Below are positions 15,710 through 33,914 of a DNA stretch of 64,000 nt, piece by piece. How positions within the stretch are numbered: position 1 is the first letter of the stretch; each line of letters starts with the position of its first letter. The notes under the pieces were generated by a model, which saw only the letters and a list, made by a program, of their open reading frames with translations, was not told where the DNA came from and ran no database searches. The stretch is from Tuwongella immobilis (GTDB lineage Bacteria; Planctomycetota; Planctomycetia; Gemmatales; Gemmataceae): the NCBI RefSeq assembly GCF_901538355.1, contig NZ_LR593887.1, positions 372,001 through 436,000 on the forward strand, in the 5' to 3' direction. Position numbers and translations under genes: made by a program.

Positions 15710-15810
15710 CTCCGGGCTGATCTGGACCGCAGAAATCGCGCGACAATCCACGATTGCAACCGGATTTGCAGCGTGGAACCATCGCCGGTGGGGAATGTGA
15801 AACTGTGCGC

Positions 15811-15838
15811 TTGACGCGACTCGTGCAGTGCCTAAGAT
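15811..15838 (+). promoter_or_regulatory. predicted sigma70-type promoter of the nuo operon
   Basis: TTGACG (15811-15816) and TAAGAT (15833-15838) are separated by 16 bp, a good match to the housekeeping consensus. Transcription would start near 15845, about 100 nt before nuoA. Confidence 0.6.
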
Positions 15839-15856
15839 ACGCTGCATGAGGAATCA

Positions 15857-15889
15857 GAACCCTCGACAATTGGTCGAGGTTCTCTTTTT
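15857..15889 (+). terminator. terminator-like leader hairpin upstream of nuoA
   Basis: GAACCCTCGAC (15857-15867) pairs with GTCGAGGTTC (15873-15882) with one bulged C, and is followed by TCTTTTT. This is the form of an intrinsic terminator. It lies about 10-15 nt after the predicted transcription start of the nuo operon and about 55 nt before nuoA. It could attenuate nuo, protect the 5' end, or terminate the upstream aminotransferase transcript. Confidence 0.65.
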
Positions 15890-15945
15890 AGCCGGGTTTG
15901 TGACTGAATTCACAAAGTCGTGCGTGCGACCCGAAAGGCATGCCC

Positions 15946-16392
15946 ATGGCACTACCCGAAGCGGTTCAGACTGCCGCTGGCCTGGAACCGGCATTTGATC
16001 TGACCAACTACTTCCCGATCTTCATCTACATGGTGGTCGTGGTGGGATTCGCGATTACGGCATTGCTGGTCACGCATTTGCCGATTTTGAAGCCGAATCG
16101 CCCGACAAAGACCAAGTTGATGCCCTATGAATCGGGTATGGATCCGATTGGCTCGGCTCAGATGCAGTTCGACGTGAAGTTTTATCTGATCGCGATTCTG
16201 TTTCTGGTCTTCGACGTGGAACTGTTGTTCTTGTATCCCTGGGCGACGATTGCCTACACGCCGGCGAATGCGGGTCCGGATTGGCGAGCCGCCTTCGGTG
16301 GTGTGGTGCTGATCGAAATTCTGTTTTTCCTCATGACCCTGGCCGTAGCGTACATTTATGCGTGGCGAAAGGGAGTGTTCCAATGGCGTTAA
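15946..16392 (+). CDS. nuoA: NADH-quinone oxidoreductase subunit A
   Basis: 148 residues, with the start at 15946 because AAAGG lies 7 nt upstream. The ATG at 15940 is too close to it. There are three transmembrane helices (about 20-45, 75-100, 115-140) and the family motif [11 protein letters not shown], followed by [26 protein letters not shown]. This inner-membrane subunit contacts the quinone-site region of complex I. Its last 10 bp overlap nuoB, so translation is probably coupled. It is the first gene of the operon. Confidence 0.96.
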
Positions 16393-16985
16393 ACGTCCCG
16401 GATTTTATGATCGCCCCCCTGGATTGGGCGGCGAATTACGTCCGCAAACATAGCCTGTGGCCCATGCCGTTCGCCACCGCTTGCTGCGGGATCGAACTGA
16501 TGGCAACCGCCTCGGCCCGTTACGATATCGCCCGCTTCGGCTCCGAAGCCATGCGATTCAGCCCCCGCCAATGCGATCTGATGATCGTCGCCGGGCGAGT
16601 CGTGATGAAGATGATTCCCGTGCTGCAACGCATTTGGCTGCAAATGCCCGAACCGAAGTGGTGCATCTCCATGGGAGCGTGTGCCTCGTCCGGCGGTGTG
16701 TTTGACACGTATGCGGTGGTGCAAGGGATCGACCGATTCATCCCCGTGGATGTGTATGTGCCCGGTTGCCCGCCGCGACCCGAGCAGCTCATTCGTGCCA
16801 TCTTGGATCTGCAAGAAAAGATCACCCAAACCGGCACGATCAACGCCCGCGAATTCGAGCAACGCACCAGCTACGAAGGGCCAGCAAACTTGGCTCGCGA
16901 ATTGTCCGCCACCGAAAAGATGGTGGTGCCCGGCGATTATCGCAGCGCCACCCGCTTGCGGGAATTGCCCGTTGTGAAGCAGTAA
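16383..16985 (+). CDS. nuoB: NADH-quinone oxidoreductase subunit B
   Basis: 200 residues starting inside the end of nuoA, with GGGAG upstream. The ligands of Fe-S cluster N2 are visible: the tandem Cys34-Cys35 in ATACCGIE, Cys100 in [10 protein letters not shown] and Cys129 in [11 protein letters not shown]2 passes electrons to quinone. The protein is peripheral, in the cytoplasmic arm. The tail of about 45 residues after the conserved core is longer than in the shortest homologues and ends ELPVVKQ. Confidence 0.96.
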
Positions 16986-17022
16986 TTCAAGAGTCGGTTC
17001 GGGATTCGGGAGAACGCGGATC

Positions 17023-17535
17023 ATGCCCAGTTATCTGGACAAACTCAAGGAACGCTTCGGGGCCGAGGCCATCACCCTATCGGCATTTACCCACAAGGGT
17101 GCCGTCATCAATCAGCGGGTGATTGTGCCAGTCGAGCAATTCCTGGATGTGATGAAGCTGCTGAAGCTGGAATGCGGCTTCGACATGCTGGCCGATGTGA
17201 CCTGCGTCGATTATCTGCAGTATCCCGATGCCCGCGACCGCTACGGGGTCATCTATCCGCTGACCAACACCAGCACCGGCGAACGGGTGGTGGTCAAGAC
17301 CTTCGTCAACGACCCTGATCCAGCGGTGCCTTCAGTCTACGACCTCTGGAAAGGGGCCGATTGGCTGGAACGCGAAGTCTACGACATGTACGGCATTCGC
17401 TTCGATGGGCACCCGGACCTGCGGCGGATTTTGATGCCGGACGAGTTCGCCTCGTACCCGCTGCGGAAAGATTACCCGCTACGTGGGAAGGCCGAACGGC
17501 ATAACTTCCCGATTTTGACGCGGGCCGACGGCTGA
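17023..17535 (+). CDS. nuoC: NADH-quinone oxidoreductase subunit C (30 kDa)
   Basis: 170 residues. The 30-kDa subunit signature is WLEREVYDMYGIRFDGHPDLRRIL, followed by YPLRKDYPLRG. It is a separate gene, not fused to nuoD as in E. coli. It lies in the peripheral arm between NuoB and NuoD. It begins 37 bp after nuoB and is followed by 153 bp before nuoD, one of the longest gaps inside the operon. Confidence 0.95.
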   Translation: MPSYLDKLKERFGAEAITLSAFTHKGAVINQRVIVPVEQFLDVMKLLKLECGFDMLADVTCVDYLQYPDARDRYGVIYPLTNTSTGERVVVKTFVNDPDPAVPSVYDLWKGADWLEREVYDMYGIRFDGHPDLRRILMPDEFASYPLRKDYPLRGKAERHNFPILTRADG

Positions 17536-17688
17536 TCCGGCTGACTGCCCGACTGGCTGTCCGAAGAATCGCCACTCGCGCATGCCCCTGCGCCGCTTTG
17601 CAACAACCCCGGCCTGCCGTGTGCGCGGTTTGCCGATGACAATCTCCGATCGATTCGTTGCTCTTGTGTTTGAGAAGGAACCGCGATC

Positions 17689-18921
17689 ATGCCATTGGAA
17701 GCGGTGCAAAGCGTCCTGGATCCGGTCGAAACTCCGGACAAGGAATATCTCTACACGCTGAATTTCGGGCCTCAGCACCCGGCCACGCACACCACGCTGC
17801 GTCTGATCCTCACCCTGGATGGTGAGACGATCGTGAAGGCCGTCCCCGATATTGGCTACCTCCACTCGGGCTTCGAGAAGTTGGGCGAAGACCTCGACTT
17901 CAACCAGTATGTGACCGTCGTCGATCGGATGAATTATATCTCGCCGATCGCCAACGAAATCGCTTGGCACAACGCCGTCGAAACGCTGCTGGGCATCGAG
18001 TTGACCCCCCGCTGCAAATACCTGCGCACCATCATCGCCGAGTTGGCCCGCATCAGCGACCACCTGCTTTGCGTTGGCGCGTGCGGCCTCGACTTGGGTG
18101 CCTTGACCGCGTTCTTGTATGCGTTCAACACCCGCGAGAAAATCTACGACATCTTCGAAACGATGTCCGGCCAACGCTTCCATCCCAGCTATTCCCGCGT
18201 TGGCGGGCTGATGCTGGATGTCACCGATGATTGGATCAGCAAGATTCGTCAGTTCGTCAAAGATTTCCCCAAGCCGCATAGCGAACTGACCCGCCTGCTG
18301 AACCGCAACCGCATCTTCGTGGATCGCACCAAAGATGTGGGCGTGCTGACCAAAGAAGAGGCGATCAACCGCAGCGCCAGCGGCCCGGTCGCGCGGGCCA
18401 GCGGTGTCGTGCGTGACCTGCGCAAGAACGAGCCGTATCTGGCCTATGGCGAACTGGCGGATAGCTTCAAGGTCATCGTCGGCAAAGACGGCGACTGCTA
18501 CACACGCTATCTCGTCCGCATGGCCGAGATGGAACAGTCCATGAAGATCATCGCCGCCGCCGTGGAGAATATCCCGACCGGGCCGGTGAATGTCGATGTG
18601 GATGAGAAGCAAGGTCTGCCCGATAAGAACGCGGTCTATCGCTCGATCGAAGGTCTGATTCAGCACTTCGAGATGATCATGACCAACCGCCGCTGGACGG
18701 CACCTGTGGATGAAGTCTACTCTGCGGTGGAAGCACCCAACGGCGAACTGGGCTTCTACATCGTCGGCGATGGAGAAGGGCGTGCCTATCGGGCCCGAAC
18801 TCGTCCGCCTTCGTTCATCCATTTCAGCATGTTCCCGCACCTGATCGAAGGGCACCAAATTTCGGACGTGCCGGCAGTGCTGGGTAGCCTGAATATCATT
18901 GCGGCCGAGTTGGATCGTTGA
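17689..18921 (+). CDS. nuoD: NADH-quinone oxidoreductase subunit D (49 kDa)
   Basis: 410 residues with AGGA upstream of the ATG. The N-terminus has NFGPQHPATHTTLRLIL, which lines the quinone pocket. GYLHSGFEKLGE, the region RVGGLMLDV and the C-terminal DPVLGSLNI-type end (here PAVLGSLNIIAAELDR) are all typical. It is related to the large subunit of [NiFe] hydrogenases but lacks the metal-binding cysteines. It is cytoplasmic and forms the quinone site with NuoB. nuoE starts 13 bp after its stop. Confidence 0.96.
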   Translation: MPLEAVQSVLDPVETPDKEYLYTLNFGPQHPATHTTLRLILTLDGETIVKAVPDIGYLHSGFEKLGEDLDFNQYVTVVDRMNYISPIANEIAWHNAVETLLGIELTPRCKYLRTIIAELARISDHLLCVGACGLDLGALTAFLYAFNTREKIYDIFETMSGQRFHPSYSRVGGLMLDVTDDWISKIRQFVKDFPKPHSELTRLLNRNRIFVDRTKDVGVLTKEEAINRSASGPVARASGVVRDLRKNEPYLAYGELADSFKVIVGKDGDCYTRYLVRMAEMEQSMKIIAAAVENIPTGPVNVDVDEKQGLPDKNAVYRSIEGLIQHFEMIMTNRRWTAPVDEVYSAVEAPNGELGFYIVGDGEGRAYRARTRPPSFIHFSMFPHLIEGHQISDVPAVLGSLNIIAAELDR

Positions 18922-18934
18922 GCGGAGTCGCCCC

Positions 18935-19411
18935 ATGCCAGTGTTAACCGAAGACATGAAGAATCGGATCCGCGGCTACCTGCCTTTGTATCCGACCAAA
19001 CAAGCCGTCACGCTGCCCGCGTTGCACCTGGTGCACGAAGAACTACGCTGTGTGCCGATGAAGGCGATTGAGGAAATCGCCGAGATTTTGGAACTCAGCC
19101 CGGCCCAGATTCACGACACGATGACCTTCTACGGATTCTTCAAAGACGAAGATCACAAGCAAGGTCGCTGCCGATTTTGGGTTTGTCGCGGCTTGGCCTG
19201 CATGCTGCGTGGCGGGTACGAGTTGCTGAATCATTGCTCCGAAAAGTTGCACCTCGCCCCGGGGGAAACCTCGGCTGATGGCAAGATCACGCTGGAATTC
19301 GCCGAGTGCATCGGTGCCTGCGATGGTGCCCCCGCGGTGTTGCTCAATGACGAACACGTCATGAATGTCACCCCCGAGAAGGCCGATCAGTTGATCGGCG
19401 GGTTGAAATAA
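18935..19411 (+). CDS. nuoE: NADH-quinone oxidoreductase subunit E (24 kDa)
   Basis: 158 residues from the ATG at 18935. Cluster N1a is bound by Cys84 and Cys89 (CRGLAC) and Cys125 and Cys129 (CIGAC) in the thioredoxin-like domain. An N-terminal helical domain precedes it. With NuoF and NuoG it forms the NADH-oxidising module in the cytoplasm. It lies 20 bp before nuoF. Confidence 0.96.
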   Translation: MPVLTEDMKNRIRGYLPLYPTKQAVTLPALHLVHEELRCVPMKAIEEIAEILELSPAQIHDTMTFYGFFKDEDHKQGRCRFWVCRGLACMLRGGYELLNHCSEKLHLAPGETSADGKITLEFAECIGACDGAPAVLLNDEHVMNVTPEKADQLIGGLK

Positions 19412-19431
19412 TTCCAACGGAGCCGAGAATC

Positions 19432-20775
19432 ATGGCCAAGTATGAACCGGTTCTGCTCGCCCGCATTCAGAAGCCCAACAGCCACAAGCTGGAAGGCTAT
19501 CGCAACGATGGCGGCTATTCGTCCTTCGAGCGAGCGATCAAGGAACTGAAGCCGGAACAAGTGATCGACACGGTTAAGAACGCAGGTCTGCGTGGCCGTG
19601 GCGGTGCGGGGTTCCCCACTGGGTTGAAGTGGACGTTCCTGCCCAAGGATCATCCCGGTCCGATTTATCTCTGCGTCAACGCGGATGAATCCGAGCCGTG
19701 CACATACAACAACCGCATTCTGATGGAAAAAGATCCCCATCAGGTGCTGGAAGGCGTGATGCTCGCCTGCTACGCCATCAAGTCGGAAAAGGCGTTCTTC
19801 TACATTCGCTACGAATATGGCACCGCCTTCCGCACGCTGAAAGCGGCCATCGAAGAATTGTACGCCGCCGGTCTGCTGGGCCGCAACATCCAAGGCACGG
19901 GCGTCAATCTGGACATCGTGCTGCATCGCGGTGCGGCGGCCTACATTTGCGGTGAAGAAACCGGGTTGATCGAATCGCTGGAAGGCAAGCGAGCCTGGCC
20001 GCGCATCAAGCCGCCGTTCCCGGCAATCGAAGGGGCATTCCGCAAGCCAACGATTGTCAACAATGTCGAAACCCTCGCCTGTGTCACACACATCATGCGC
20101 AAGGGCGTCGATTGGTTCAAGTCGCTGGGGGTAGCCCCCGATCCCAACAATCCGCGTGATGCGGGGAGCTTTGGGCCGAAATTGTACACCATCGCCGGTC
20201 ATGTCAACGAACCGAAATGCGTGGAACTGCCGATGGGCGTGACGCTTCGGGAGTTGATCGACAAGCATGGCGGCGGGGTGTGGAAGGGCCGTAAGGTCAA
20301 AGCCGCCAATCCGGGTGGGTTGTCGATGGGCTTCGTGACCGAATCGGAACTCGATATTCCGCTCGATTTCAACGGGCCGGGCAAAGTCGGCTGCCTGGGT
20401 TTGGGCACGGCGGCGATTACCGTGATCGATGATCAGACCAGCATGGTCGATGTGCTGCACAACGTCTGCCAATTCTACGCGCATGAATCGTGCGGCCAAT
20501 GCACGCCTTGCCGGGAAGGCACGGGTTGGATGCTCAAGATCACCGACCGGCTGCGCTCCGGACAAGGTCGCCGGGAAGACTTGGATATCTTGGTGGAAGT
20601 CGCGGATCGGATCGGTATCATGCCAGGAACGACGATTTGCGGCTTGTCGGATGGTGCCGGTTGGCCGGTGAAAACCGCCATTCGGAAATTCCGCAAGGAA
20701 TTCGAAGATGCGATTCGCGGTGGTCAACCCAGCCCGATTCGTGCTTCGCTGCCGGTGCTGGCCGGGGCGCACTAA
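19432..20775 (+). CDS. nuoF: NADH-quinone oxidoreductase subunit F (51 kDa)
   Basis: 447 residues. The FMN/NADH-binding glycine motif GRGGAGFPTGLKW, the segment NADESEPCTYNNR and the cluster N3 motif ESCGQCTPCREGTGWM are all present, with the fourth Cys ligand in TTICGLSDG. It oxidises NADH and passes electrons through FMN to the Fe-S chain. It is the last gene before an unusual lipoprotein gene that separates it from nuoG. Confidence 0.97.
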   Translation: MAKYEPVLLARIQKPNSHKLEGYRNDGGYSSFERAIKELKPEQVIDTVKNAGLRGRGGAGFPTGLKWTFLPKDHPGPIYLCVNADESEPCTYNNRILMEKDPHQVLEGVMLACYAIKSEKAFFYIRYEYGTAFRTLKAAIEELYAAGLLGRNIQGTGVNLDIVLHRGAAAYICGEETGLIESLEGKRAWPRIKPPFPAIEGAFRKPTIVNNVETLACVTHIMRKGVDWFKSLGVAPDPNNPRDAGSFGPKLYTIAGHVNEPKCVELPMGVTLRELIDKHGGGVWKGRKVKAANPGGLSMGFVTESELDIPLDFNGPGKVGCLGLGTAAITVIDDQTSMVDVLHNVCQFYAHESCGQCTPCREGTGWMLKITDRLRSGQGRREDLDILVEVADRIGIMPGTTICGLSDGAGWPVKTAIRKFRKEFEDAIRGGQPSPIRASLPVLAGAH

Positions 20776-20828
20776 GCGTTCTGCCGCGTCGACTTGGGCT
20801 GAAAATCGCCGAACGGGGGGATCGCATC

Positions 20829-21506
20829 ATGCGTGTGCTGCTCGTGATCGGACTATCGCTAGGTTTGGCGTCGGGCTGCAAAAAAGCCATGGACGCCCTC
20901 GATAAAGATGCCCAAGTGGGCGCGGATGAGAAATCCAAGACGCTCCAGGAATATCTGCGGACGCCGCCACCCGCGCAGCCGTCCGCACCGCCGATGATGG
21001 CGGGGAACAACCCGCAAGGCAACGCGCCGCAAGCCGGAAATCCGACGGGAAATCCGAACGTGCGGCCGAATCCGGTGATGGGTGGCAACCCACCGCCGCA
21101 ACAGCAACCGACACCGCCTCAGCCGATGAATCCAAATCCTGGAATCGGTGCGGCTCAAGGTGGTTCGGGTGGGGCGGCTCAGGCGGTTCGCGGGGCAGTG
21201 CGTCGCACGGTATCCGCGAATGATTTGGCGAACCTGCGCATTTACATCGAATCGGCATCGCTGGCGAGTGGTTCGATGCCCGGGCCGCAACAGATTCTTG
21301 CGGATGTGTCGCGGGATTTGCCCGGCGTGGTGAAGGCGGTGCAAGAAGGGTCGCTGGTGCTGACTGGTATTCGTCAGCGCGAAGGGGTGTGGGCCTATGA
21401 AGCGGCCGCGCTCAGCCAAGCGAATGGCGGCATGGTGCTGACCAATAACGGGGTCGAGCGCATGTCGCCGCAGCAGTTGCAGCAAGCCTTGCAATTGCAG
21501 CGATAA
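20829..21506 (+). CDS. proline-rich lipoprotein inserted between nuoF and nuoG
   Basis: 225 residues. The signal peptide ends in a lipobox, LASGC, with Cys17 as the predicted lipidation site. A Pro/Asn/Gln-rich linker (about 50-125) joins it to a compact C-terminal domain (about 130-225) containing NDLANLRIYIESASLASG and VVKAVQEGSLVLTGIRQREGVWAYE. The family is not one I can name. It is exported and membrane-attached, unlike the cytoplasmic NuoF and NuoG on either side. It is followed by an intrinsic terminator-like hairpin 75 bp after its stop. It may be a complex I accessory factor or an unrelated passenger. Confidence 0.85.
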   Translation: MRVLLVIGLSLGLASGCKKAMDALDKDAQVGADEKSKTLQEYLRTPPPAQPSAPPMMAGNNPQGNAPQAGNPTGNPNVRPNPVMGGNPPPQQQPTPPQPMNPNPGIGAAQGGSGGAAQAVRGAVRRTVSANDLANLRIYIESASLASGSMPGPQQILADVSRDLPGVVKAVQEGSLVLTGIRQREGVWAYEAAALSQANGGMVLTNNGVERMSPQQLQQALQLQR

Positions 21507-21580
21507 GCGAATTTTCGGATGGGAGTGCGATCGGTTCTTCGGGGCCGGTCGCCGGTTTGGGAAGTGGTTTCTCATGGATC

Positions 21581-21604
21581 CCGGGCGTCCTCCGCCCGGT
21601 TTTT
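21581..21604 (+). terminator. intrinsic terminator just upstream of nuoG
   Basis: CCGGGCG (21581-21587), a 5-nt loop and CGCCCGG (21593-21599) form a perfect 7-bp GC stem followed by TTTTT (21600-21604). It lies between the lipoprotein gene and nuoG, only 16 nt before the nuoG ATG, and would limit read-through into nuoG-N unless it is attenuated or nuoG has its own promoter upstream. Confidence 0.75.
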
Positions 21605-21620
21605 CTTCAGGTGGACGGCC

Positions 21621-23348
21621 ATGGCCATCGTTTATGTGAACGACCAGCCGGTAGACATCGGGAATGAGCGGCTGAACCTGATCGAGGCCGCGGAAAAGGC
21701 CGGCGTGTTCATTCCGCACTACTGCTGGCACCCGGCGTTGAGCGTGGTCGCTAGCTGCCGGATGTGCTTGGTGGAAACCGGCGAACGCAAGCCGGACGGC
21801 ACCATCCTGATGCAGCCCAAAGTGGTGCCCGGCTGTCAAACGCCTGCCCGCGATGGGACGATCATCATCACCGGGGAATACGGCAAAGCGCCCGCGACGG
21901 GGGCCGCTGCCGAGCCGCTGCCGTATCCTGCAAACTACCGCCCCGGCGACAAGGCCAAGAAATCGCAAGCCGACACTCTGGAAAATCTGCTGCTCAATCA
22001 CCCGTTGGATTGTCCGGTTTGTGACAAGGCCGGCGAGTGCAAGCTGCAAGACTTCAGCTTCAAATACGGCCGCAGTCAATCGCGGCTGGTGGACGAAAAG
22101 AACACCCCGCCGAATAAGCCGAACCTCAGCGAACGCATCGCGTTGTTCACCGACCGATGCATCATGTGTTCCCGATGTGTGCGCTTCACCCGCGAAGTGG
22201 CTGGCACCTCGGAATTGCAGATTGTCAATCGCGGCAATCATGCTGAAATCGACGTGTTCCCCGGTCGGCCGCTCAACAACAAGCTCTCCGGCAACGTCGT
22301 CGATCTCTGCCCGGTTGGTGCGTTGGGCAGCAAAGACTTCTTGTACAAGCAGCGCGTGTGGTTCCTGAAGACGACCCCGAGCATTTGCGCGGGTTGCTCG
22401 ACCGGCTGCGCGATCGATGTCGATGCCAACAAGGATATCGTGTTCCGACTGCGGGCCCGATTCAATCCGCAAGCCCAAGGGCACTTCATCTGCGATGAGG
22501 GGCGTTGGGGCTATCACTATGTCAATTCCGCCGAGCGACATACGCGGGCGTTCGGTCGCAAAGACGGCGAACTGAAGCCGGTTAGCTACGCGGATGCGCT
22601 GTCGGGCATTCGCGTCGATCTGGCCAACGCCGTCGCCGAGAAGCCGGAAAGCGTGGTCTTCGCGCTGTCGCCATTCCTGACGGTGGAAGAGGCGTATCTG
22701 CTGGCGAGCTATGCCAAGAGCCTGTCGCCGAATGTCAAGTTGGTGTTGGGGCCGGTGCCGGTGGTTGGCCAAGACGACACCTTCCCGAAGAATTGGAAGG
22801 GCGAGCCGGTTCAACCGGTGAAGTTCACGATTCGAGCGGAAAAGGCACCGAATCGCCTGGGTGTGGAAGCGGTGTTGAAGCACTTCCAAGGGGACGTGAT
22901 TCCGCTGAACAATCTGAACGAATCGGTGGCCCGTGGCCAGGTGAAGACGCTGTTTTTGAGCGGTGGCTATCCGGCTGTGGGGTGGCTGAACGACTTTGAA
23001 ACCAATATCCTGAAGACGATTCCGACGCTGATCGTTCAGGATTTGTTCCGCACGGAACTGAGCAAGTCTGCGAAGTGGGTTTTGCCGGCGGCGAGCTTTG
23101 CGGAGAAAGACGGCACGTTCGTCAATCACGCGGGGCTGGCCCAGGCTTTGCGTCGGGTGGTGAAATCGCCCGGCGAAGTGCGAACGGAAGGCCAAGTGGC
23201 AGCCGATCTGAGCGGCCGCAAGGGCTTGCTGCATGTGCCGACGATTCGCAAGGAAATTGCCGCGGCGATCCCGGCGTTGTCTGTGCTCGGCGGCGAGCTG
23301 GGCGAACATGGTGTGAAACTGTCGGCCCCCGCGATGGCCACCGTCTGA
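21621..23348 (+). CDS. nuoG: NADH-quinone oxidoreductase subunit G (75 kDa), short form with N7-type site
   Basis: 575 residues from the ATG at 21621, which follows AGGTGG. Cluster ligands are visible: 2Fe-2S N1b at Cys35, Cys46, Cys49 and Cys72; N5 at His127, Cys131, Cys134 and Cys140; N4 at Cys180, Cys183, Cys186 and Cys230; and an N7-type site at Cys256, Cys259, Cys263 and Cys291. The molybdopterin-oxidoreductase-like C-terminal half is much shorter than in E. coli NuoG (over 900 residues). It acts in the cytoplasmic electron-transfer arm. nuoH follows after 24 bp. Confidence 0.96.
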   Translation: MAIVYVNDQPVDIGNERLNLIEAAEKAGVFIPHYCWHPALSVVASCRMCLVETGERKPDGTILMQPKVVPGCQTPARDGTIIITGEYGKAPATGAAAEPLPYPANYRPGDKAKKSQADTLENLLLNHPLDCPVCDKAGECKLQDFSFKYGRSQSRLVDEKNTPPNKPNLSERIALFTDRCIMCSRCVRFTREVAGTSELQIVNRGNHAEIDVFPGRPLNNKLSGNVVDLCPVGALGSKDFLYKQRVWFLKTTPSICAGCSTGCAIDVDANKDIVFRLRARFNPQAQGHFICDEGRWGYHYVNSAERHTRAFGRKDGELKPVSYADALSGIRVDLANAVAEKPESVVFALSPFLTVEEAYLLASYAKSLSPNVKLVLGPVPVVGQDDTFPKNWKGEPVQPVKFTIRAEKAPNRLGVEAVLKHFQGDVIPLNNLNESVARGQVKTLFLSGGYPAVGWLNDFETNILKTIPTLIVQDLFRTELSKSAKWVLPAASFAEKDGTFVNHAGLAQALRRVVKSPGEVRTEGQVAADLSGRKGLLHVPTIRKEIAAAIPALSVLGGELGEHGVKLSAPAMATV

Positions 23349-23372
23349 CTCTGACCGCAAGGAATCTCGACG

Positions 23373-24623
23373 ATGCCCAGCTTTAGTCTGCTGTTCACGC
23401 TCTTCATCATTGCGGTGGTGATGGGCGTGATCCTCAACACGGTCGCCTACCTCATTTATGTCGAGCGGAAAATCTCGGCATACATGCAAGAACGCATCGG
23501 GCCCAACCGCGTCGGCCCATTCGGGCTGATTCAACCGTTGGTCGATGGTGCGAAGATGTTCCTCAAAGAGGACATCATCCCCAAGCATGTGGATCGCGTT
23601 TTCTATCTGCTGGCACCGGGAGTCGCGGCGGCCACGGCCTTGTTTGCCTTCGTTGTGGTCCCGTTCGGCCCGACGACTCCACCGCCGGCTCCCGTGGTTG
23701 TGACCGCCGAGATGACTCCGGCAGAAGCAGTCAATGCGTTCAACAAGACCCAAGAAGCCTATCAATCGCAAACCAGCTATGTGATTGCACCGGGCATCAA
23801 CATTGGCATGCTGTTCACGTTCGCCATCGGTTCGCTGGCGGTGTACGGCATCATCCTGGGCGGTTGGTCCGCTGGGAGCAAATACGCCTTTTTGGGTGCG
23901 TTGCGCAGCTCGGCACAGATCATCAGTTACGAAATCCCGTTGGGGCTGTCGATTCTGGGCGTTGTGCTCCTGATTGGCTCCTTCAATTTGGAAACCGTGA
24001 TTAATTGGCAGACACAACATGGTTGGATGGTGTTGTATCAGCCGCTGGCGTTCTTGATCTTCCTGACGGCGGTTTTCGCGGAATGCAATCGCTTGCCGTT
24101 CGACTTGCCGGAAGCGGAACAGGAACTGGTCGGCGGGTATCACACGGAATACTCGTCGCTGAAGTTCGGTCTGTTCTATCTGGGCGAATACACGCACATG
24201 ATTACCACCAGCGCGCTGGCGTCGATCGTCTTCTTCGGCGGTTGGCACATGCCGTTTGTGAGCGAGTGGGTGACACCCGGTTCGCTGGCGGATATCGCCA
24301 TCAAGTTTGCCGCGCTCATGGGCAAGATCACGTTCTTCATTCTGTTCTACATGCTGGTGCGTTGGACGATTCCGCGCTTCCGATTCGACCAGCTCATGGG
24401 CTTGGCCTGGCAGGTGATGGTGCCGTTGGCCACGCTGAACATTCTGTGTGTGATGTTGGTCCGCGAATTCCTGATGCCGGAAAGCTTCAACAGCAACGGC
24501 TGGATTCTGACGGCAGCCTCGTTTGGATTGTTTGCCATCTCGGCGTTGATTTCGACTACTGCAACCCCGGGACGCCGGATGCCGGCTCGCAAGCCGACCC
24601 CGCAAGTTCCCGCAGGCGTTTGA
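23373..24623 (+). CDS. nuoH: NADH-quinone oxidoreductase subunit H, with enlarged loop
   Basis: 416 residues against about 325 in E. coli. Eight or more transmembrane helices are expected. ERKISAYMQERIGPNRVGP (about 31-49) and AECNRLPFDLPEAEQELVGGYHTEYS are diagnostic of the quinone-channel subunit. Between PFGP (97-100) and GINIGMLF (from 141) lies an extra hydrophilic segment that makes this loop about 25 residues longer than in E. coli. The C-terminus is also extended and basic. It is an inner-membrane protein. A strong hairpin separates it from nuoI. Confidence 0.95.
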   Translation: MPSFSLLFTLFIIAVVMGVILNTVAYLIYVERKISAYMQERIGPNRVGPFGLIQPLVDGAKMFLKEDIIPKHVDRVFYLLAPGVAAATALFAFVVVPFGPTTPPPAPVVVTAEMTPAEAVNAFNKTQEAYQSQTSYVIAPGINIGMLFTFAIGSLAVYGIILGGWSAGSKYAFLGALRSSAQIISYEIPLGLSILGVVLLIGSFNLETVINWQTQHGWMVLYQPLAFLIFLTAVFAECNRLPFDLPEAEQELVGGYHTEYSSLKFGLFYLGEYTHMITTSALASIVFFGGWHMPFVSEWVTPGSLADIAIKFAALMGKITFFILFYMLVRWTIPRFRFDQLMGLAWQVMVPLATLNILCVMLVREFLMPESFNSNGWILTAASFGLFAISALISTTATPGRRMPARKPTPQVPAGV

Positions 24624-24633
24624 ACCATTCATT

Positions 24634-24672
24634 GCCCCCTTGGTGGTCTTCGCAACCGACCGCCAAGGGGGC
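24634..24672 (+). promoter_or_regulatory. 15-bp hairpin between nuoH and nuoI
   Basis: GCCCCCTTGGTGGTC (24634-24648) pairs with GACCGCCAAGGGGGC (24658-24672) along 15 bp with a single G-U wobble and a 9-nt loop. No U-tract follows, so it is more likely an mRNA processing or stability element than a terminator. It ends 18 nt before the nuoI start. Confidence 0.65.
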
Positions 24673-24689
24673 CGATTTGAAAAGGCGGC

Positions 24690-25271
24690 ATGCGCATGGC
24701 AGTCATCGACGAAAAAGACGTAATCACCATCTCGGCCCCCAAGTTGGGCTTCTGGGATAAGCTGTACGTTCCCGCGATTCTGGAAGGGCTTTCCATCACC
24801 GGGAAGCACATTCTGGGACCGAAAACGACGGAACAATATCCGGAACAAGAACCGGACTTGCCCGCGAATTATCGCGGCGTGCATCGGCTGAATCGGGATG
24901 AAGAAGGGCGTGTCCGCTGCGTGGCCTGCTACATGTGCTCGACCGCATGCCCGGCCCACTGCATCGACATTGTCGCGGCACCTTCTCCGTGGGGAGATCG
25001 TGAAAAATATCCCGAGACCTTTGTCATCGACGAGTTGCGCTGTATCTATTGCGGCATGTGCGAAGAAGCCTGCCCGGTCGATGCGATCGAACTGACCGGG
25101 CTCTACGATCTGACCGGGCTTTCCCGCGAACAAATGCTGTTCGACAAGGAAAAACTGCTCAGCGTTTGGGACGAAACGCACACGAATCCCAAAGACCCGG
25201 TGCGTACTCGGGTGGGCAAGCTAGGCCCGGCGGCCGAGTTGCCAGTTGTGCCAGCGGGCGATAAGAAGTGA
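24690..25271 (+). CDS. nuoI: NADH-quinone oxidoreductase subunit I (23 kDa ferredoxin-like)
   Basis: 193 residues. Two 4Fe-4S motifs (N6a and N6b) are visible: Cys77, 80, 83, 87 (CVACYMCSTACP) and Cys118, 121, 124, 128 (CIYCGMCEEACP). The start is 24690 or 24696. AAAGG spacing is 4 nt for the first and 10 nt for the second. The tail is rich in Lys and Pro. It links NuoG clusters to N2 in NuoB on the cytoplasmic face. Confidence 0.96.
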   Translation: MRMAVIDEKDVITISAPKLGFWDKLYVPAILEGLSITGKHILGPKTTEQYPEQEPDLPANYRGVHRLNRDEEGRVRCVACYMCSTACPAHCIDIVAAPSPWGDREKYPETFVIDELRCIYCGMCEEACPVDAIELTGLYDLTGLSREQMLFDKEKLLSVWDETHTNPKDPVRTRVGKLGPAAELPVVPAGDKK

Positions 25272-25331
25272 TTCGCTGGCTCGCTTCGGCTGGGTACTCG
25301 CGTTGACTCCTTGCACGACGAAAGGCTGTCC

Positions 25332-26414
25332 ATGAACGGGCCGCTCTTACTGCCGATCACACTCGGTTTTCTGAGTATCTTCACACTGTTGCCCCGCACC
25401 CGGTTGGGATCTCCCATTCCGGGCGCGCTGCTGGGGCTTGCCGCCCTGGTTTCTCTGGGGGCATACCTGCTGGGCACCACGACTGGCCGCCCACTGGTGA
25501 CCGTGGAAGAACTCCTCTTCTACGCATTCGCCGGAAAAGCCATCCTCTTTGCCGGTCTGATGATCGTGCAGCGCAATCCGGCTCGATCCGCCATCGCCTT
25601 TGCGGTGGTGATTCTGTCGGTCTGCGGGCTGTTCCTGCTGCAGGGGGCACCGTTCCTGTTCGCCGCCACGCTGATTATCTACGCGGGGGCGATCATCGTG
25701 ACGTTCTTGTTTGTGCTGATGCTCTCCGCACAATCGGGCTATTCCTTCTCCGATGCCAACGACCGCTCCCGCGAGCCGTTCCTGGCCTCGCTGGTGGGGT
25801 TCGTGTTGCTGGGCGTGCTGCTGGTAGTACTGCAACGGGCCTACGATCAACGCAGCTTGGATCGCTTGCTGCTGCTGGCCAATAACGCCAGCCGAGCCAC
25901 AACTGCCGATGAATTGCAAGCGGTGATTCCCACTCCGGTGGCTTACCTGGAATCGCTGCGGCGGGAAGTGGATCTGATTCAGATGCCGGTCGAAAAGGGC
26001 ACCGATGACGATCTCCGCTCGAAATTCGACATGCTGCAAGCGGCCATCGAATCGTTGAAGCAGACCCTGCAATCGCCGCCCGATGCCGCACAATGGGAAT
26101 CCAAGGTGCAACAGCCGTTGGTCGAACTGACCAAATTGGGCCGCGATGTGCAACGCAGCGTGAACGATCCGCTGATTCGCAATCAAAAGATGCTGGAATC
26201 GACCAAGACGGTTGTTTCGTCCGGCTATGGGGCGAGCCTGCCGGCCTCTCCGAGCGGCTTGCGGGAACTGCCGGCCGCGAACGTGCCTGCGTTGGGACGC
26301 ACGCTGTTTTCCGATCATTTGCTGACCGTGGAACTGGCGGGAACCCTGCTTCTGGTCGCCACCATTGGGGCGATCCTGATCGCAAGTGACCGACCGCTGA
26401 GGAACCCTGTATGA
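25332..26414 (+). CDS. nuoJ: NADH-quinone oxidoreductase subunit J with large soluble insertion
   Basis: 360 residues from 25332 (AAAGG 7 nt upstream). NuoJ is normally 165-200 residues. Here two extra hydrophobic segments (about 4-48) precede the usual core (about 60-170), which includes the conserved LIIYAGAIIVTFLFVLML (115-132, the pi-bulge helix region). Residues about 170-322 are a hydrophilic, probably helical insertion (for example DLRSKFDMLQAAIESLKQTL). The final canonical helix, LFSDHLLTVELAGTLLLVAT, follows it. The stop overlaps the nuoK start (ATGA). Confidence 0.93.
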   Translation: MNGPLLLPITLGFLSIFTLLPRTRLGSPIPGALLGLAALVSLGAYLLGTTTGRPLVTVEELLFYAFAGKAILFAGLMIVQRNPARSAIAFAVVILSVCGLFLLQGAPFLFAATLIIYAGAIIVTFLFVLMLSAQSGYSFSDANDRSREPFLASLVGFVLLGVLLVVLQRAYDQRSLDRLLLLANNASRATTADELQAVIPTPVAYLESLRREVDLIQMPVEKGTDDDLRSKFDMLQAAIESLKQTLQSPPDAAQWESKVQQPLVELTKLGRDVQRSVNDPLIRNQKMLESTKTVVSSGYGASLPASPSGLRELPAANVPALGRTLFSDHLLTVELAGTLLLVATIGAILIASDRPLRNPV

Positions 26415-26833
26415 TTTCGCTCTACCACTACCTCGCGGTGGGTGCGGCCCTGTTCGCACTCGGCCTGATTGGGTTTCTGTCGCGGCGGAACCTCATTCTG
26501 ATGTTCCTGTCCGCCGAAATGATGCTGCAAGGCGTCACCTTGAATTTGGTGGCGTTCTCGCGCTACCACACGAATATGTCCGGCCAAGTGTTCACGCTGT
26601 TTGTGGTCACGGTGGCCGCCTGTGAAGCAGGACTGGCGATGGCGTTGATTCTGATGCTGTACAAACGCAAGAAATCGCTGGATGTTAGCTTGTGGCAAGA
26701 TCTCCGCGAACCGGGCCAAGACGCGACGATCGATAGCGATCCGCTGCCGCCGGAACCCGAACGCGAAGCCTACCCGACGCTGACCCCGGCTGGTCGTGAA
26801 CCCGCTCGCAACCAGGAGGCAACCTATGTCTGA
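26411..26833 (+). CDS. nuoK: NADH-quinone oxidoreductase subunit K with C-terminal extension
   Basis: 140 residues, while NuoK is usually about 100. Three helices with the proton-path glutamates are present: SAEMMLQGVTLNLVAF and VTVAACEAGLAMALI. After about residue 97 comes a soluble, acidic, Pro-rich tail (SDPLPPEPEREAYPTLTP) that is not part of the family core. Start and stop overlap its neighbours: ATGA with nuoJ, and 8 bp with nuoL. Confidence 0.94.
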   Translation: MISLYHYLAVGAALFALGLIGFLSRRNLILMFLSAEMMLQGVTLNLVAFSRYHTNMSGQVFTLFVVTVAACEAGLAMALILMLYKRKKSLDVSLWQDLREPGQDATIDSDPLPPEPEREAYPTLTPAGREPARNQEATYV

Positions 26834-28793
26834 GACGCAGTTGCTCTGGGCGATTCCCGGGTTGCCACTTCTGGCCGCCCTGATCGCCGCCTGCATGGCC
26901 TTCACCAAGCAACGCAATCTCGCCCATTTGCCGGTGCTGATCGCGTTCCCCATGGCGTGCATTTGCTCCTTCCAGGCCATCCTGGCGCTCGACGCCAGCC
27001 ATGTGAGCCTGACCACCGAATCGGTCACCTGGTTCGAGGCGGGGAAAATCTCCGTCGGATTCGGACTCGCCGTCGATGGATTGTCCGCGCTGATGCTCAC
27101 CGTCATTACCTTCGTCGGGAGCTTCATCGCCCTGTTCTCCATCGGCTACATGCATCACAGTGGCGGCTACGCTCGCTACTTCGCCGTGCTGAGCCTGTTC
27201 GTTGCCAGCATGTGCTTGCTGGTGATGGCTGATAATTTCCTGGTGCTGTTTGCCGGCTGGGAAGGCGTGGGGGTGTGCAGCTACTTGCTGGTGGGGTACT
27301 ACTTCGCCAAGCCCGCTGCCGCTCATGCCGCTCGCAAGGCGTTCCTGGTGACGCGATTGGGCGATATTGGCCTGATTATTGGCATTTTCTTGCTGTGGCA
27401 AGCCACCGGATTCTCGCTGCAATTTGAGCGCATTTTCTCGGCAGATTTCCTGGAAATCGCCAAGCAGAATCCCAAGACGATTACCGCTGCCTGCCTGCTG
27501 ATTTTCTGCGGGGCGATCGGCAAGTCGGCTCAGTTTCCGCTGTATGTCTGGTTGCCCGATGCGATGGAAGGCCCAACCCCCGCCTCCGCGCTCATTCACG
27601 CCGCCACCATGGTGACCGCAGGTGTGTATCTGCTGGCCCGTTGTGCGCCGTTGTTTGTGCTGTCGCCGATTGCTCAAGCGATCGTGGCCACCGTGGGGGT
27701 GACGACCGCATTCCTGGCGGCATTCATCGCACTGACGCAGCACGATCTCAAGCGTGTGCTGGCCTATTCGACCGTGAGTCAATTGGGCTTCATGTTCTTC
27801 GCCCTCGGCTGCGGGACGCCCAGCTTGGTGCAAATGGCCGTCTCGGCCGCGATTTTCCACCTGTTCACGCACGCGTTCTTCAAGGCGGTGCTGTTCTTGT
27901 CCGCCGGGTCGGTGATGCACGCCATGGGCGATGTCATCGACATGCGGAAGTTCAGCGGGCTGCGAAAGCTGATGCCGGTGACACACCTGACCTTCTTGGC
28001 CGGTGCATTGGCGTTGGCTGGAGTTCCCTTGCTGTCCGGTTTCTGGAGCAAAGAAGCGATCTTCGGCGTGGCTTTGGAAATTTCGGAAGCGAATGGCCCG
28101 TACTCGACGCTGTACGGTGCGCTGCTGATTACCGCGATTGCCACCGCCGGGATGACCGCATTCTACACCTTCCGGGCCTACTACCGCACCTTCTGGGGGC
28201 CGCTGGTGGTGCCGCCCGAAGCGGGACATCACGCCCATGAATCGCCGCGGATCATGCGGGTGCCGCTGATTGTGCTGGCGGTCGGCTCGCTGGCGATCGG
28301 TGCAGTCATGGGACCGCTCACGCATCAGTTCGAGCATTTGATCGAAAAGGCCGATCCGCTGACGCAAGTGGCCGAGATCACCCACGTGCATGCCTCGCAT
28401 GAGCATGCCGAAAGCCCCTGGCTGCTGCTGACGAGCATCGTCGTGGCGCTGGGCGGGGTGGGTCTGGCAACGCTGCTCTACGCATGGCCGAATCGCATCG
28501 CCGACACGGCTGCCAAGGTGTTGAAGCTGCCATACTATCTGTCGGTGAATCGACTGTATTTGGACGAAATCTATCAATTCTTCTTCGCCAAGGGGCTTGC
28601 GCTTCTGGCCTGGGTGAGTTGGGGATTGGATTACGTGATCGACGGGATTGCCCAAGTGTTTGCGGCAATGCCCCGCGTGTTGGGCCGCGTGCTGCAACCG
28701 ATTCAACTGGGATTGGTGCAGTTCTACGCACTCGCCATGGTGACGGGCCTGGTGGGGTTCTTGTGCTTCTTGGTGTTGTCAACGGGGCGCTGA
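26826..28793 (+). CDS. nuoL: NADH-quinone oxidoreductase subunit L (antiporter-like)
   Basis: 655 residues from 26826, preceded by a near-perfect AGGAGG. It is a Mrp-antiporter-like subunit with about 16 helices. Key segments are FAGWEGVGVCSYLLVGYYF (with the conserved Glu), SAQFPLYVWLPDAMEGPTPASALIHAATMV and AYSTVSQLGFM. The end carries the lateral helix region that braces NuoM and NuoN. It translocates protons in the inner membrane. Confidence 0.96.
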   Translation: MSETQLLWAIPGLPLLAALIAACMAFTKQRNLAHLPVLIAFPMACICSFQAILALDASHVSLTTESVTWFEAGKISVGFGLAVDGLSALMLTVITFVGSFIALFSIGYMHHSGGYARYFAVLSLFVASMCLLVMADNFLVLFAGWEGVGVCSYLLVGYYFAKPAAAHAARKAFLVTRLGDIGLIIGIFLLWQATGFSLQFERIFSADFLEIAKQNPKTITAACLLIFCGAIGKSAQFPLYVWLPDAMEGPTPASALIHAATMVTAGVYLLARCAPLFVLSPIAQAIVATVGVTTAFLAAFIALTQHDLKRVLAYSTVSQLGFMFFALGCGTPSLVQMAVSAAIFHLFTHAFFKAVLFLSAGSVMHAMGDVIDMRKFSGLRKLMPVTHLTFLAGALALAGVPLLSGFWSKEAIFGVALEISEANGPYSTLYGALLITAIATAGMTAFYTFRAYYRTFWGPLVVPPEAGHHAHESPRIMRVPLIVLAVGSLAIGAVMGPLTHQFEHLIEKADPLTQVAEITHVHASHEHAESPWLLLTSIVVALGGVGLATLLYAWPNRIADTAAKVLKLPYYLSVNRLYLDEIYQFFFAKGLALLAWVSWGLDYVIDGIAQVFAAMPRVLGRVLQPIQLGLVQFYALAMVTGLVGFLCFLVLSTGR

Positions 28794-28796
28794 CGC

Positions 28797-30482
28797 ATGC
28801 CGAACGAGTCGCTTTACAAGCTGCTAGTCATCGCCTTGCTGGCGCTGCCGGTGGTGGCTGCCGCCGTGGTGATGACGCTGGGCCGCACCAGCGTGAGCCG
28901 TGCTCGCATGTCGAGCCTGCTCTTGGCCCTGGTGCATTTGGGCCTGACCCTGTCGTTGGTGTTCCCGGTGATGCCGGTGCTGGCCGAACGCACCCTGACG
29001 GCGAACACGGTATTTGACCCGATTCTGGTGACCAAGGCGACGCTGTTGCCCATCGCAACGCAAGCCAACGCCACCGGGGTGCAATTCTTCATCGGCATCG
29101 ATGGCCTGAATCTCTGGCTGGTGGCACTCTCCAGCGTGATGATGATTCCGGTCATTCTGGTGTCCTGGCATGGCATCCAAGATCGGGCGGCCAGTTTCTA
29201 TGCATGGCTGTTTCTGCTGCAATCCGCCACCATTGGCCTCTTCCTGGCCTTTGACTTGGTGCTGTTTTACGCGTTCTTCGAACTGACGCTCATTCCGATG
29301 TTCTTCCTGATTGGCCAATGGGGCATCGGGGCGGCGCGTCGGGATGCCGCTCGGAAGTTCTTCCTCTACACGCTGGCGGGGTCGCTCATTACCCTCGTCG
29401 GCTTGGTGGGCACCGTGCTGACGTTGGGCGGCTTGGCCGGCGGAAAGCTGACCTTTGCCATCCCCGAACTTGTGCAGCAAGTGCAAACCGTGACCACCTC
29501 CAGCGAGGCCAACAAAACTGCCTGGGCCAATGCCCAAGTGTGGCTGTTCATCGCCTTGCTGATGGGCTTCGCGGTCAAGATTCCGATTGTGCCGCTGCAC
29601 TCGTGGTTGCCATCCGCGTACAGCGAATCGCCCGCCGGTGTGACCGTGTTCCTGTCCGCGCTGCTGGCAAAGATGGGGACATTCGGCTTGCTGCGGGTGG
29701 TGATGCCGCTGACGCCGGATGCCACGCTGAGCTTCGGGTTGCCGGTCGTCGGCTCGCTCGCCGCCTTTGCGATTCTGTACGGGGCGCTGGTGGCCTACGC
29801 TCAGACCGACATGAAGAAGATGATCGCCTACAGCTCCATCTCGCACTTGGCGTTCTGCGTGCTGGCACTGATGGCCTTCAATACCGAAGGCATGAGCGGC
29901 GGTCTGCTGCACATGGTCAACCACGGAATCAGCACCGGGGCGTTGTTTGTGCTGGTGGGGCTGATGGTCGATCGCTACTCGACGCATTCGATGGCGTCGT
30001 ACAGCGGTCTGATGACCAAGCTGCCAATCTTCTCGCTGTTCATGATGATTCTGACGCTGGCCAGCATCGGCCTGCCGGGGTTGTGCAACTTCGTCAGCGA
30101 AATGCTGATGTTGGGCAGTCTGTTTGATATGCGAAATCCCTCGGTGAAGGGCTTTGCCTTCGCGGGGATCGCCGGGTTCGGCATCTTCCTGAGCGCCTGG
30201 TACATGCTGACGATGATTCAGCGCGTCTTCTTCGGGCCGGTTCGGGAGCCGATTCGGGTGAACCTGCCGCCTGCGAAAGACCTGAACAGCCGCGAAATTT
30301 GGGCGGTCGCTCCGTTGGTGGTGCTGTGTGTGCTGTTGGGCTGCAAGCCGCAACCGTTCCTGCAGGTGATGAAGCCGGAAATCACCGCGTTGTCTCAAGT
30401 GGCGAATGCTGCACGGGATCGGGTTCCGACGACCTCGCCCGGCCAGACGCCGACCGGATCCGCCACCGCGAGTGTGCGTTAA
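28797..30482 (+). CDS. nuoM: NADH-quinone oxidoreductase subunit M (antiporter-like)
   Basis: 561 residues starting 3 bp after the nuoL stop. Conserved segments are FYAFFELTLIPMFFLIGQWG (with Glu), VKIPIVPLHSWLPSAYSESPAG and IAYSSISHLAFCVL. It has about 14 transmembrane helices. A short Thr/Pro/Ser-rich tail follows the last helix. It is a proton-pumping membrane subunit. Confidence 0.96.
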   Translation: MPNESLYKLLVIALLALPVVAAAVVMTLGRTSVSRARMSSLLLALVHLGLTLSLVFPVMPVLAERTLTANTVFDPILVTKATLLPIATQANATGVQFFIGIDGLNLWLVALSSVMMIPVILVSWHGIQDRAASFYAWLFLLQSATIGLFLAFDLVLFYAFFELTLIPMFFLIGQWGIGAARRDAARKFFLYTLAGSLITLVGLVGTVLTLGGLAGGKLTFAIPELVQQVQTVTTSSEANKTAWANAQVWLFIALLMGFAVKIPIVPLHSWLPSAYSESPAGVTVFLSALLAKMGTFGLLRVVMPLTPDATLSFGLPVVGSLAAFAILYGALVAYAQTDMKKMIAYSSISHLAFCVLALMAFNTEGMSGGLLHMVNHGISTGALFVLVGLMVDRYSTHSMASYSGLMTKLPIFSLFMMILTLASIGLPGLCNFVSEMLMLGSLFDMRNPSVKGFAFAGIAGFGIFLSAWYMLTMIQRVFFGPVREPIRVNLPPAKDLNSREIWAVAPLVVLCVLLGCKPQPFLQVMKPEITALSQVANAARDRVPTTSPGQTPTGSATASVR

Positions 30483-30497
30483 CAGGAGTTTCTCCCC

Positions 30498-32072: not shown

Positions 32073-32417
32073 CAATCCCCGCAGCCGGTGCCGATCATCG
32101 CCCTGCCATGCGAATCTGAGACCGAATCGATCATCCTCCGCGAGTCCGCCTCGGCGACTTTCGGAGGATGATTCCGTTTCGGTGATCCATTGCCCAGTTG
32201 ATGTCGCAGCCAAGTCAATTGATGCAATTTGGCGTTGAGCCGCATTCGAGAATTGCAGCAAATCGAAATTTCTGACAATCTGCTTGCTGTCGAGACGCGA
32301 GTCGGTACGATTGATCGGTCGATGGGATTCGGTCGATGCGAGTGAGCGGATCATCCGCGCACGCCGCGAAAAACCATCTCAGATGCCGACCACATCGAAA
32401 ATACAAAGGAGTTGACG
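32073..32417 (+). other. 345-bp region between nuoN and the next gene
   Basis: It contains the operon-end hairpin at 32130-32172 and the upstream region of the small secreted protein gene. No other gene or RNA is supported. Confidence 0.6.
32130..32172 (+). terminator. hairpin at the end of the nuo operon
   Basis: ATCATCCTCCG (32130-32140) and CGGAGGATGAT (32162-32172) form a perfect 11-bp stem. A smaller CGAG/CTCG stem sits inside the loop, and TCCGTTTC follows. It is a terminator without a strong U-run. Confidence 0.65.
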
Positions 32418-33785: not shown

Positions 33786-33867
33786 ACGACTCGCGACTTG
33801 GCCCCGACGTTGAGCGAATTCGCCCGCCGGGGAAAATGTCAGGAGAAATGTCGGGGCGGATGGAAGT

Positions 33868-33910: not shown

Positions 33911-33914
33911 GGGC

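What the first reader, a model, noticed from the sequence alone, without database searches (positions are those of the whole stretch)
20776..21620. Lipoprotein gene and intrinsic terminator interrupt the complex I operon before nuoG
Between nuoF and nuoG lies an unrelated exported lipoprotein gene followed by a perfect GC hairpin with five T, only 16 nt from the nuoG start codon. Complex I needs equal amounts of its subunits, so a terminator here implies regulated read-through, a hidden promoter, or a role for the lipoprotein in the complex.
Basis: seen in the sequence. Interest (0 to 1): 0.6.

Follow-up and report, generated by a model that had tools for sequence, protein, structure and literature searches.

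The report
Pilin-partner lipoprotein inside complex I operon
A small membrane-anchored protein gene is widely kept in the middle of the respiratory complex I gene cluster of one group of planctomycete bacteria, and in this genome it is followed by a strong hairpin that may partly stop transcription; the gene looks inherited rather than a chance intruder, and the hairpin is a local, untested extra.

Summary
A 225-aa lipoprotein ORF (20829-21506) lies between nuoF and nuoG. A perfect 7-bp G+C hairpin plus TTTTT (21581-21604) ends 16 nt before the nuoG ATG (21621). It is the only hairpin of that strength in 464 kb sampled of this genome.

The lipoprotein is not an unrelated intruder. Its C-terminal domain lies at the nuoF-nuoG junction in 63 of 91 loci fetched from the order, always on the nuo strand, with dN/dS 0.034-0.271 in 13 pairs. 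It belongs to an uncatalogued family of small lipoproteins. In 13 of 13 loci tested away from nuo, the gene directly upstream encodes an N_methyl + DUF1559 pseudopilin. The nuo copy is an orphan of that pairing.

The hairpin is not part of the conserved arrangement: 4 of 60 related spacers have a T-tailed hairpin, in two lineages.

Best reading: an old passenger or accessory gene, plus a lineage-specific leaky terminator or stem-loop that may lower nuoG-N relative to nuoA-F. No RNA data were available, so termination is inferred. A complex I role for the lipoprotein is open; the one link tested (NuoJ length) gave no independent support, with only 4 independent pairs.

The parts
19432..20775 (+). 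nuoF (447 aa)
   Evidence: Pfam Complex1_51K 3.6e-45
20829..21506 (+). lipoprotein gene: signal peptide with lipobox (LASG-C, by eye), Pro/Gly/Asn-rich linker, C-terminal domain
   Evidence: ORF and N-terminus; no Pfam or NCBIfam family
21165..21497 (+). C-terminal domain shared with the DUF1559-partner lipoproteins; helices plus four strands in the model
   Evidence: family HMM, AlphaFold2 on 9 sequences, pLDDT 84.8, pTM 0.75, hhalign to partner lipoproteins
21527..21552 (+). stem-loop 1, 11 bp with a UUCG loop, no T tail
   Evidence: p 0.045 in the spacer; z -1.8
21581..21604 (+). stem-loop 2: perfect 7-bp G+C hairpin plus TTTTT, intrinsic-terminator-like
21609..21614 (+). Shine-Dalgarno-like AGGTGG of nuoG (read by eye)
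   Evidence: sequence
21621..23348 (+). nuoG (575 aa)
   Evidence: Pfam Fer4_Nqo3 2.7e-25, NADH-G_4Fe-4S_3 7.1e-15, Molybdopterin 1.2e-16
15940..32072 (+). complex I operon nuoA-N around the feature; nuoC, M, N named from order and recall only
   Evidence: ORFs; Pfam for A, B, D, E, F, G, H; I, J, K found again in relatives by tblastn

Best explanation
Two things of different age sit here. (1) An exported lipoprotein gene that was probably already between nuoF and nuoG in the ancestor of this order and has been kept in most lineages. It belongs to a family of small lipoproteins that elsewhere follow N_methyl-DUF1559 pseudopilin genes, and it was probably recruited from such a pair into the nuo operon. 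It is co-transcribed with nuo and makes an envelope lipoprotein whose work lies most likely outside the complex I core. (2) A hairpin that arose in this lineage, which most likely acts as a leaky intrinsic terminator: part of the transcripts end after the lipoprotein gene and the rest read through into nuoG-N, so the nuoA-F-lipoprotein part would be made in some excess. Shown: gene, synteny, strand, selection on the domain, family kinship, hairpin strength, rarity in relatives. Inferred: ancestral presence (the tree cannot tell gain from loss), recruitment from a pseudopilin pair, co-transcription, partial termination, the effect on subunit ratio, the site of action of the lipoprotein.
For: Domain in 63 of 91 fetched nuoF-nuoG loci, all 78 copies on the nuo strand, in both families of the order. 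F-G gap of 350 nt or more in 64 of 87 loci against 1 of 58 (H-I) and 3 of 53 (I-J); about 3 of 59 at G-H. dN/dS 0.034-0.271 in 13 pairs. Lipobox-like N-terminus in 52 of 78 copies by a strict pattern, 22 hydrophobic without it, 4 neither (fused copies share an N-terminus). Absent in 17 of 17 outgroup loci where both genes were found. Family link: hhalign 99.5% over 97 columns to 9 lipoproteins elsewhere, whose upstream gene is N_methyl + SBP_bac_10 in 13 of 13 loci tested. Hairpin: unique strength in 464 kb, dG -14.6, T tail on the + strand. Precedent: internal stem-loops with termination efficiencies of 20.7-96.1% set operon ratios in Clostridia (PMC9045158, abstract and one results section read).
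Against: No RNA evidence. Stem-loops in this spacer are no more frequent across relatives than in nuoH-I/I-J spacers (8 of 44 against 18 of 79 at p<0.05), and T-tailed ones occur in only 4 of 60, so no conserved control exists here. T-tailed strong hairpins are only about two-fold over shuffles in this genome (26 against 11-17), so intrinsic termination may be little used. The whole spacer folds no better than shuffles (z -0.66). Complex I subunits work 1:1 (recalled), so a strong terminator would be costly.
Confidence: 0.5

Rival explanations
1. The hairpins do not terminate in vivo; they are mRNA features. Stem-loop 1 (UUCG loop) and stem-loop 2 protect or mark a processed 3' end of the nuoF-lipoprotein segment, or keep the nuoG start region open, so ratios are set by decay, not by termination.
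For: Two tandem stem-loops; stem-loop 2 ends just before the nuoG Shine-Dalgarno-like site without covering it. A structured RNA named nuoG is listed for enterobacteria (RF01748; table entry seen in PMC2864571). Selective RNA processing is reported to set subunit ratios in Clostridium cellulolyticum (PMC4423207, search listing and start of abstract only).
Against: The T5 tail directly after the stem is the mark of a terminator, not of a processing hairpin; no Rfam family reaches its gathering score in the window; not conserved in relatives.
Confidence: 0.3
2. The lipoprotein is a periplasmic accessory or assembly factor of complex I in this order, touching the enlarged NuoH/NuoJ loops.
For: Widely kept position in the operon, purifying selection, long NuoH (416 aa) and NuoJ (367 aa); NuoJ of 262-266 aa in six genomes, all without the lipoprotein at nuo.
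Against: The short NuoJ is one clade on the tree; independent pairs give no support (4 pairs, median p 1), a test too small to exclude a link. Long NuoH/NuoJ also occur without the lipoprotein. At least 7 presence/absence changes. Family members elsewhere go with pseudopilin genes, not with respiration.
Confidence: 0.15
3. The hairpin is a chance or neutral sequence; the operon is transcribed evenly.
For: Rare in relatives (4 of 60); shuffled DNA gives such a hairpin about once per 1.4 Mb scanned (2 in 6 x 464 kb), so a few are expected genome-wide.
Against: Its place in a spacer, on the coding strand, with T5 directly after a perfect G+C stem is unlikely by chance; another lineage (G009, G010, G012, one genus) has its own T-tailed hairpin in the same spacer.
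Confidence: 0.15

Closest known systems
Internal intrinsic terminators that set operon stoichiometry (ABC importers of cellulolytic Clostridia, PMC9045158)
   Same: Stem-loop with a T-rich tail between genes of one operon, downstream of an exported-protein gene
   Different: There termination and ratios were measured; here only sequence. The known cases recur across operons; this one is confined to one lineage.
N_methyl-DUF1559 (SBP_bac_10) pseudopilins and their neighbouring small lipoproteins in Planctomycetes
   Same: The nuo lipoprotein shares its C-terminal domain with lipoproteins encoded directly after DUF1559 genes; part of the domain also resembles the DUF1559 segment after the pilin helix (hhalign 96.3%, 62 columns, against 11 DUF1559 proteins of this genome)
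   Different: No prepilin helix, lipobox instead, and it sits alone in the nuo operon without a pseudopilin partner
nuoG RNA motif (Rfam RF01748, enterobacteria)
   Same: RNA structure linked to nuoG
   Different: No Rfam match at gathering score in this window; different phylum, simple hairpins
Bacterial complex I accessory subunits such as Thermus Nqo16 (PMC8762328, passages)
   Same: Non-core protein linked to complex I
   Different: Nqo16 wedges between peripheral-arm subunits; this one is predicted to be exported and lipid-anchored, and no binding is shown

Membership tests
Intrinsic (Rho-independent) terminator | G+C-rich hairpin directly followed by a T run | tested here: met
   7 of 7 G-C pairs, loop 5, TTTTT directly after
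Intrinsic (Rho-independent) terminator | stable fold beyond chance | tested here: met
   dG -14.6, z -2.9; unique in 464 kb
Intrinsic (Rho-independent) terminator | transcripts end in the T run | not testable with these tools
   no RNA data available
Bacterial lipoprotein | signal peptide with lipobox cysteine | tested here: met
   MRVLLVIGLSLGLASG|C; pattern met in 52 of 78 family copies, the window copy among them. Lipidation itself not tested, no signal-peptide program run
DUF1559-partner lipoprotein family (named here) | shared C-terminal domain with lipoproteins next to DUF1559 genes | tested here: met
   hhalign 99.5%, 97 columns for the broad alignment A1 (57 of 78 copies); 97.5%, 93 columns for the close nuo group A2 (12 copies)
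DUF1559-partner lipoprotein family (named here) | located directly after an N_methyl-DUF1559 gene | tested here: not met
   the nuo copy follows nuoF; 13 of 13 tested loci elsewhere do meet it
DUF1559 / SBP_bac_10 (PF07596) proper | match over the Pfam cut-off | tested here: not met
   no match for the window protein; 10 of 57 family members match weakly, best E 2.9e-4
GspG/pseudopilin fold | structural match to solved pseudopilins | tested here: inconclusive
   Foldseek best E 0.55 (LexA); type IV pilin PilA5 at Z 2.8, rmsd 5.8, 83 aligned in the second look
Complex I accessory subunit | bound to the complex | not testable with these tools
   synteny only
nuoG RNA motif RF01748 | match to the Rfam model | tested here: not met
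   0 matches at gathering score in the window; no permissive search was run

The most novel reading that the evidence does not exclude
In this planctomycete order complex I has taken up a lipoprotein from the pseudopilin-partner family as a periplasmic accessory or assembly factor, and in this lineage a leaky terminator right after it splits the operon so that the NADH-module front part plus the lipoprotein is made in excess over nuoG and the membrane arm, giving a control point for assembly.
Probability: 0.1. Interest if true: 0.65.

Novelty: new variant of a known kind. Interest (0 to 1): 0.36.

Why it matters
It gives an order-wide variant of one of the best-known operons, shows that the nuoF|nuoG junction has taken in different extra genes in several planctomycete lineages, and points to a small lipoprotein family that pairs with the greatly amplified DUF1559 pseudopilins, whose function is unknown. 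If the hairpin works, it would be an internal terminator in a complex whose subunits should be made in equal numbers.

Tried and rejected
Repeat element: the hairpin core has no second exact copy in the genome (three others at 3 mismatches), so it is not a dispersed repeat.

Conserved terminator: rejected; T-tailed hairpins are in 4 of 60 X-nuoG spacers, 1 of 53 H-I and 0 of 52 I-J (reverse strand: 1, 0, 0). A looser scan found the same four plus G030, which lacks the lipoprotein. Stem strength in the X-nuoG spacer does not exceed control spacers.

Known RNA family: none at gathering score; no permissive search was run.

NuoJ/NuoH co-evolution with the lipoprotein: looked promising (short NuoJ in six genomes, all without it) but is a single clade; 4 independent pairs give no support and could not have reached significance. 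The tree was a quick one of 60 rows with 9 open branches; G066 was not counted.

Fold: the model is confident but Foldseek and VIA-align gave no clear relative. No pseudopilin is in the 50 Foldseek rows shown, and PilA5 is weak at Z 2.8; this neither shows nor excludes the fold. The link to DUF1559 rests on profiles; the 9 partner lipoproteins against DUF1559 directly gave no support (0.7%). The DUF1559 alignment held 11 proteins from 30 loci, two of them identical.

Rows dropped: of 102 genomes in the order, 11 were not fetched because nuoF or nuoG was missing or the two were on separate contigs; of the 91 fetched loci, 4 (G018, G091, G095, G096) show only one of the two ends. G065 and G066 (2.5-kb gaps) had weak matches to the first, longer model but none to the domain model and count as without it. 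G016 and G019 have gaps with other ORFs. Of 20 outgroup loci, 3 lack a detectable nuoG. One search found 18 family places away from nuo in 30 genomes; 14 had loci, 13 were tested (L317 was not). In one search one tested ORF (L316) was the wrong neighbour and the right one was tested. In L318-L320 the small gene itself was placed by the match, not by an ORF printed. hhalign E-values are for single comparisons; the HMM was built iteratively on the same loci, so the most distant members (E near 1e-12) are less sure. dN/dS is Nei-Gojobori on the domain only, with high dS in some pairs. Papers: no listing on a nuoF-nuoG lipoprotein or terminator in planctomycetes turned up in six searches (best 10-15 rows each); that is absence in those listings only. 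That the window is Tuwongella immobilis (6.69 Mb) is recalled and not confirmed.

Full report
What is there. The complex I operon runs on the + strand from nuoA (15940) to nuoN (ends 32072; nuoC, M and N named from order and recall). Between nuoF (ends 20775) and nuoG (ATG 21621) lies an 845-nt gap with one ORF on that strand, 20829-21506, 225 aa. Its start reads as a signal sequence with a lipobox cysteine, then a Pro/Gly/Asn-rich linker, then a domain of about 110 aa. Pfam finds nothing in it and neither does NCBIfam. After its stop come a stem-loop with a UUCG loop (21527-21552) and then the hairpin of the finding (21581-21599) with TTTTT, 16 nt before nuoG.

Is the hairpin more than chance? 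In 464 kb of this genome it is the only one with at least 7 pairs, at least 6 G-C and T5; six shuffles gave two in all. Weaker T-tailed hairpins are only about two-fold over shuffles (26 against 11-17), and a loose scan of 15000-34000 shows no excess at all (14 against 18.0), so this genome seems to use intrinsic terminators sparingly. The hairpin core has no second exact copy in the genome. No promoter-like site of the sigma-70 kind was found on the + strand between nuoF and nuoG, though planctomycete promoters may differ.

The lipoprotein looks like an inherited member of the operon. In 102 genomes of the order, NuoF and NuoG were mapped and 91 junctions were fetched. A domain model found the lipoprotein domain in 63 of 91, 78 copies, all on the nuo strand, some in tandem or fused. 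The gap is 350 nt or more in 64 of 87 junctions with both ends, against 1 of 58 at nuoH-I and 3 of 53 at nuoI-J, and about 3 of 59 at nuoG-H. The domain evolves fast (identity to the window copy 11-46% in 57 of the 78 copies) but under purifying selection (dN/dS 0.034-0.271 in 13 close pairs). It occurs in both families of the order; on a quick tree of 60 genomes at least 7 changes of presence are needed, most simply an old gene lost several times, though the tree cannot tell gain from loss. It was found in 0 of 17 outgroup junctions with both genes. Four of those hold other genes at the same place: three a nucleotidyltransferase-like gene (DUF6036/AbiEii by Pfam in the two scanned, one of them just under the cut-off) and one a 23S rRNA IVP protein. 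The nuoF|nuoG junction thus takes in extra genes repeatedly.

What the lipoprotein is. At E up to 1e-9 the same domain occurs away from nuo in 11 of 25 genomes that lack it at nuo, and in 3 of 5 genomes with it that were searched (G010, G036, G094), as small proteins of about 130-145 aa with lipobox-like starts where an ORF was read. In 13 of 13 such loci tested the gene directly upstream encodes an N_methyl-DUF1559 pseudopilin (13 of 18 places found). Profile comparison joins nine of them to the nuo copies over 97 columns at 99.5%. Part of the nuo domain also resembles the segment of DUF1559 pseudopilins after the pilin helix (hhalign 96.3%, 62 columns); in the own genome the domain model has 96 further hits at E up to 1, mostly over its first 40 positions, and the top ones coincide in place with DUF1559 genes. 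GspG similarity is weak. Partner lipoproteins against DUF1559 directly show no such link, so descent from a pseudopilin is a suggestion, while kinship with the partner lipoproteins is well supported. The Tuwongella proteome paper says that such pseudopilin genes are often flanked by genes with type I or II signal peptides (PMC8567305, section 18 read). In this genome the nuo copy is the only match over nearly the whole model. A predicted structure of the domain is confident (pLDDT 84.8) but no solved fold matched clearly.

The hairpin is local. Of 60 lipoprotein-nuoG spacers 4 have a T-tailed hairpin: this one, and three genomes of one other genus with their own, 66-67 nt before nuoG. Stem-loops as such are not richer here than in other nuo spacers (8 of 44 against 18 of 79). 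So the arrangement nuoF-lipoprotein-nuoG exists without a T-tailed hairpin in 56 of 60.

How it most likely works. The operon is read through from nuoA to nuoN, with the lipoprotein made as a passenger or accessory. In this lineage a fraction of polymerases stops at 21600-21605, giving more nuoA-F-lipoprotein message than nuoG-N message. Internal stem-loops of this kind have measured termination efficiencies of 20.7-96.1% in Clostridia (PMC9045158). The step from sequence to termination is inferred. The lipoprotein stop lies 74 nt before the hairpin, so its translation would not be expected to disturb it. The rival reading is that the stem-loops act on mRNA stability or processing.

A role in complex I? 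NuoH and NuoJ are long in this order; that this is longer than usual and that the extra parts face the periplasm is recalled, apart from an insert visible in the NuoH Pfam match. The only correlation seen, short NuoJ in six genomes without the lipoprotein, is a single clade and gives no independent support, in a test of 4 pairs that could not have reached significance. The pairing of the family with pseudopilins elsewhere argues for an envelope role. I hold a complex I role at 0.15.

Verdict. The sequence observation is right; the idea of a foreign insertion is not borne out; the idea of an operon-internal terminator is plausible for this lineage and untested.

Noticed in passing
L258, L257, L265 (G149, G155, G256), nuoF-nuoG gap: In three outgroup planctomycete families the same junction holds a nucleotidyltransferase-like gene; by Pfam DUF6036/AbiEii in L258 and DUF6036 just under the cut-off in L265, L257 not scanned
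   Followed up: partly
L250 (G148) 417-818 and L080 (G016): A 23S rRNA intervening-sequence protein gene (Pfam) in one nuoF-nuoG gap; in another a small ORF that looks like a GxxExxY protein (recalled, not scanned)
   Followed up: partly
window 15811-15940: Ahead of nuoA: a promoter-like TTGACG-16-TAAGAT (15811-15838), then a hairpin 15861-15879 with TTCTCTTTTT, then nuoA at 15940; either the terminator of the upstream gene or an attenuator in the nuo leader
   Followed up: no
window 21574-21639: A 21-codon ORF spans the hairpin and overlaps the nuoG start; a possible leader peptide or chance (sequence)
   Followed up: no
L311-L316, L318-L321, L323-L325: An uncatalogued family of small lipoproteins directly downstream of N_methyl-DUF1559 pseudopilin genes, 13 of 13 loci tested; a candidate functional partner of DUF1559 proteins, which are the largest paralogue group of Planctopirus limnophila (PMC10632474, passage)
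   Followed up: partly
window 25311-26414 and 23373-24623: NuoJ (367 aa) and NuoH (416 aa) are long here and in most relatives measured; one clade of six genomes has NuoJ of only 262-266 aa
   Followed up: partly
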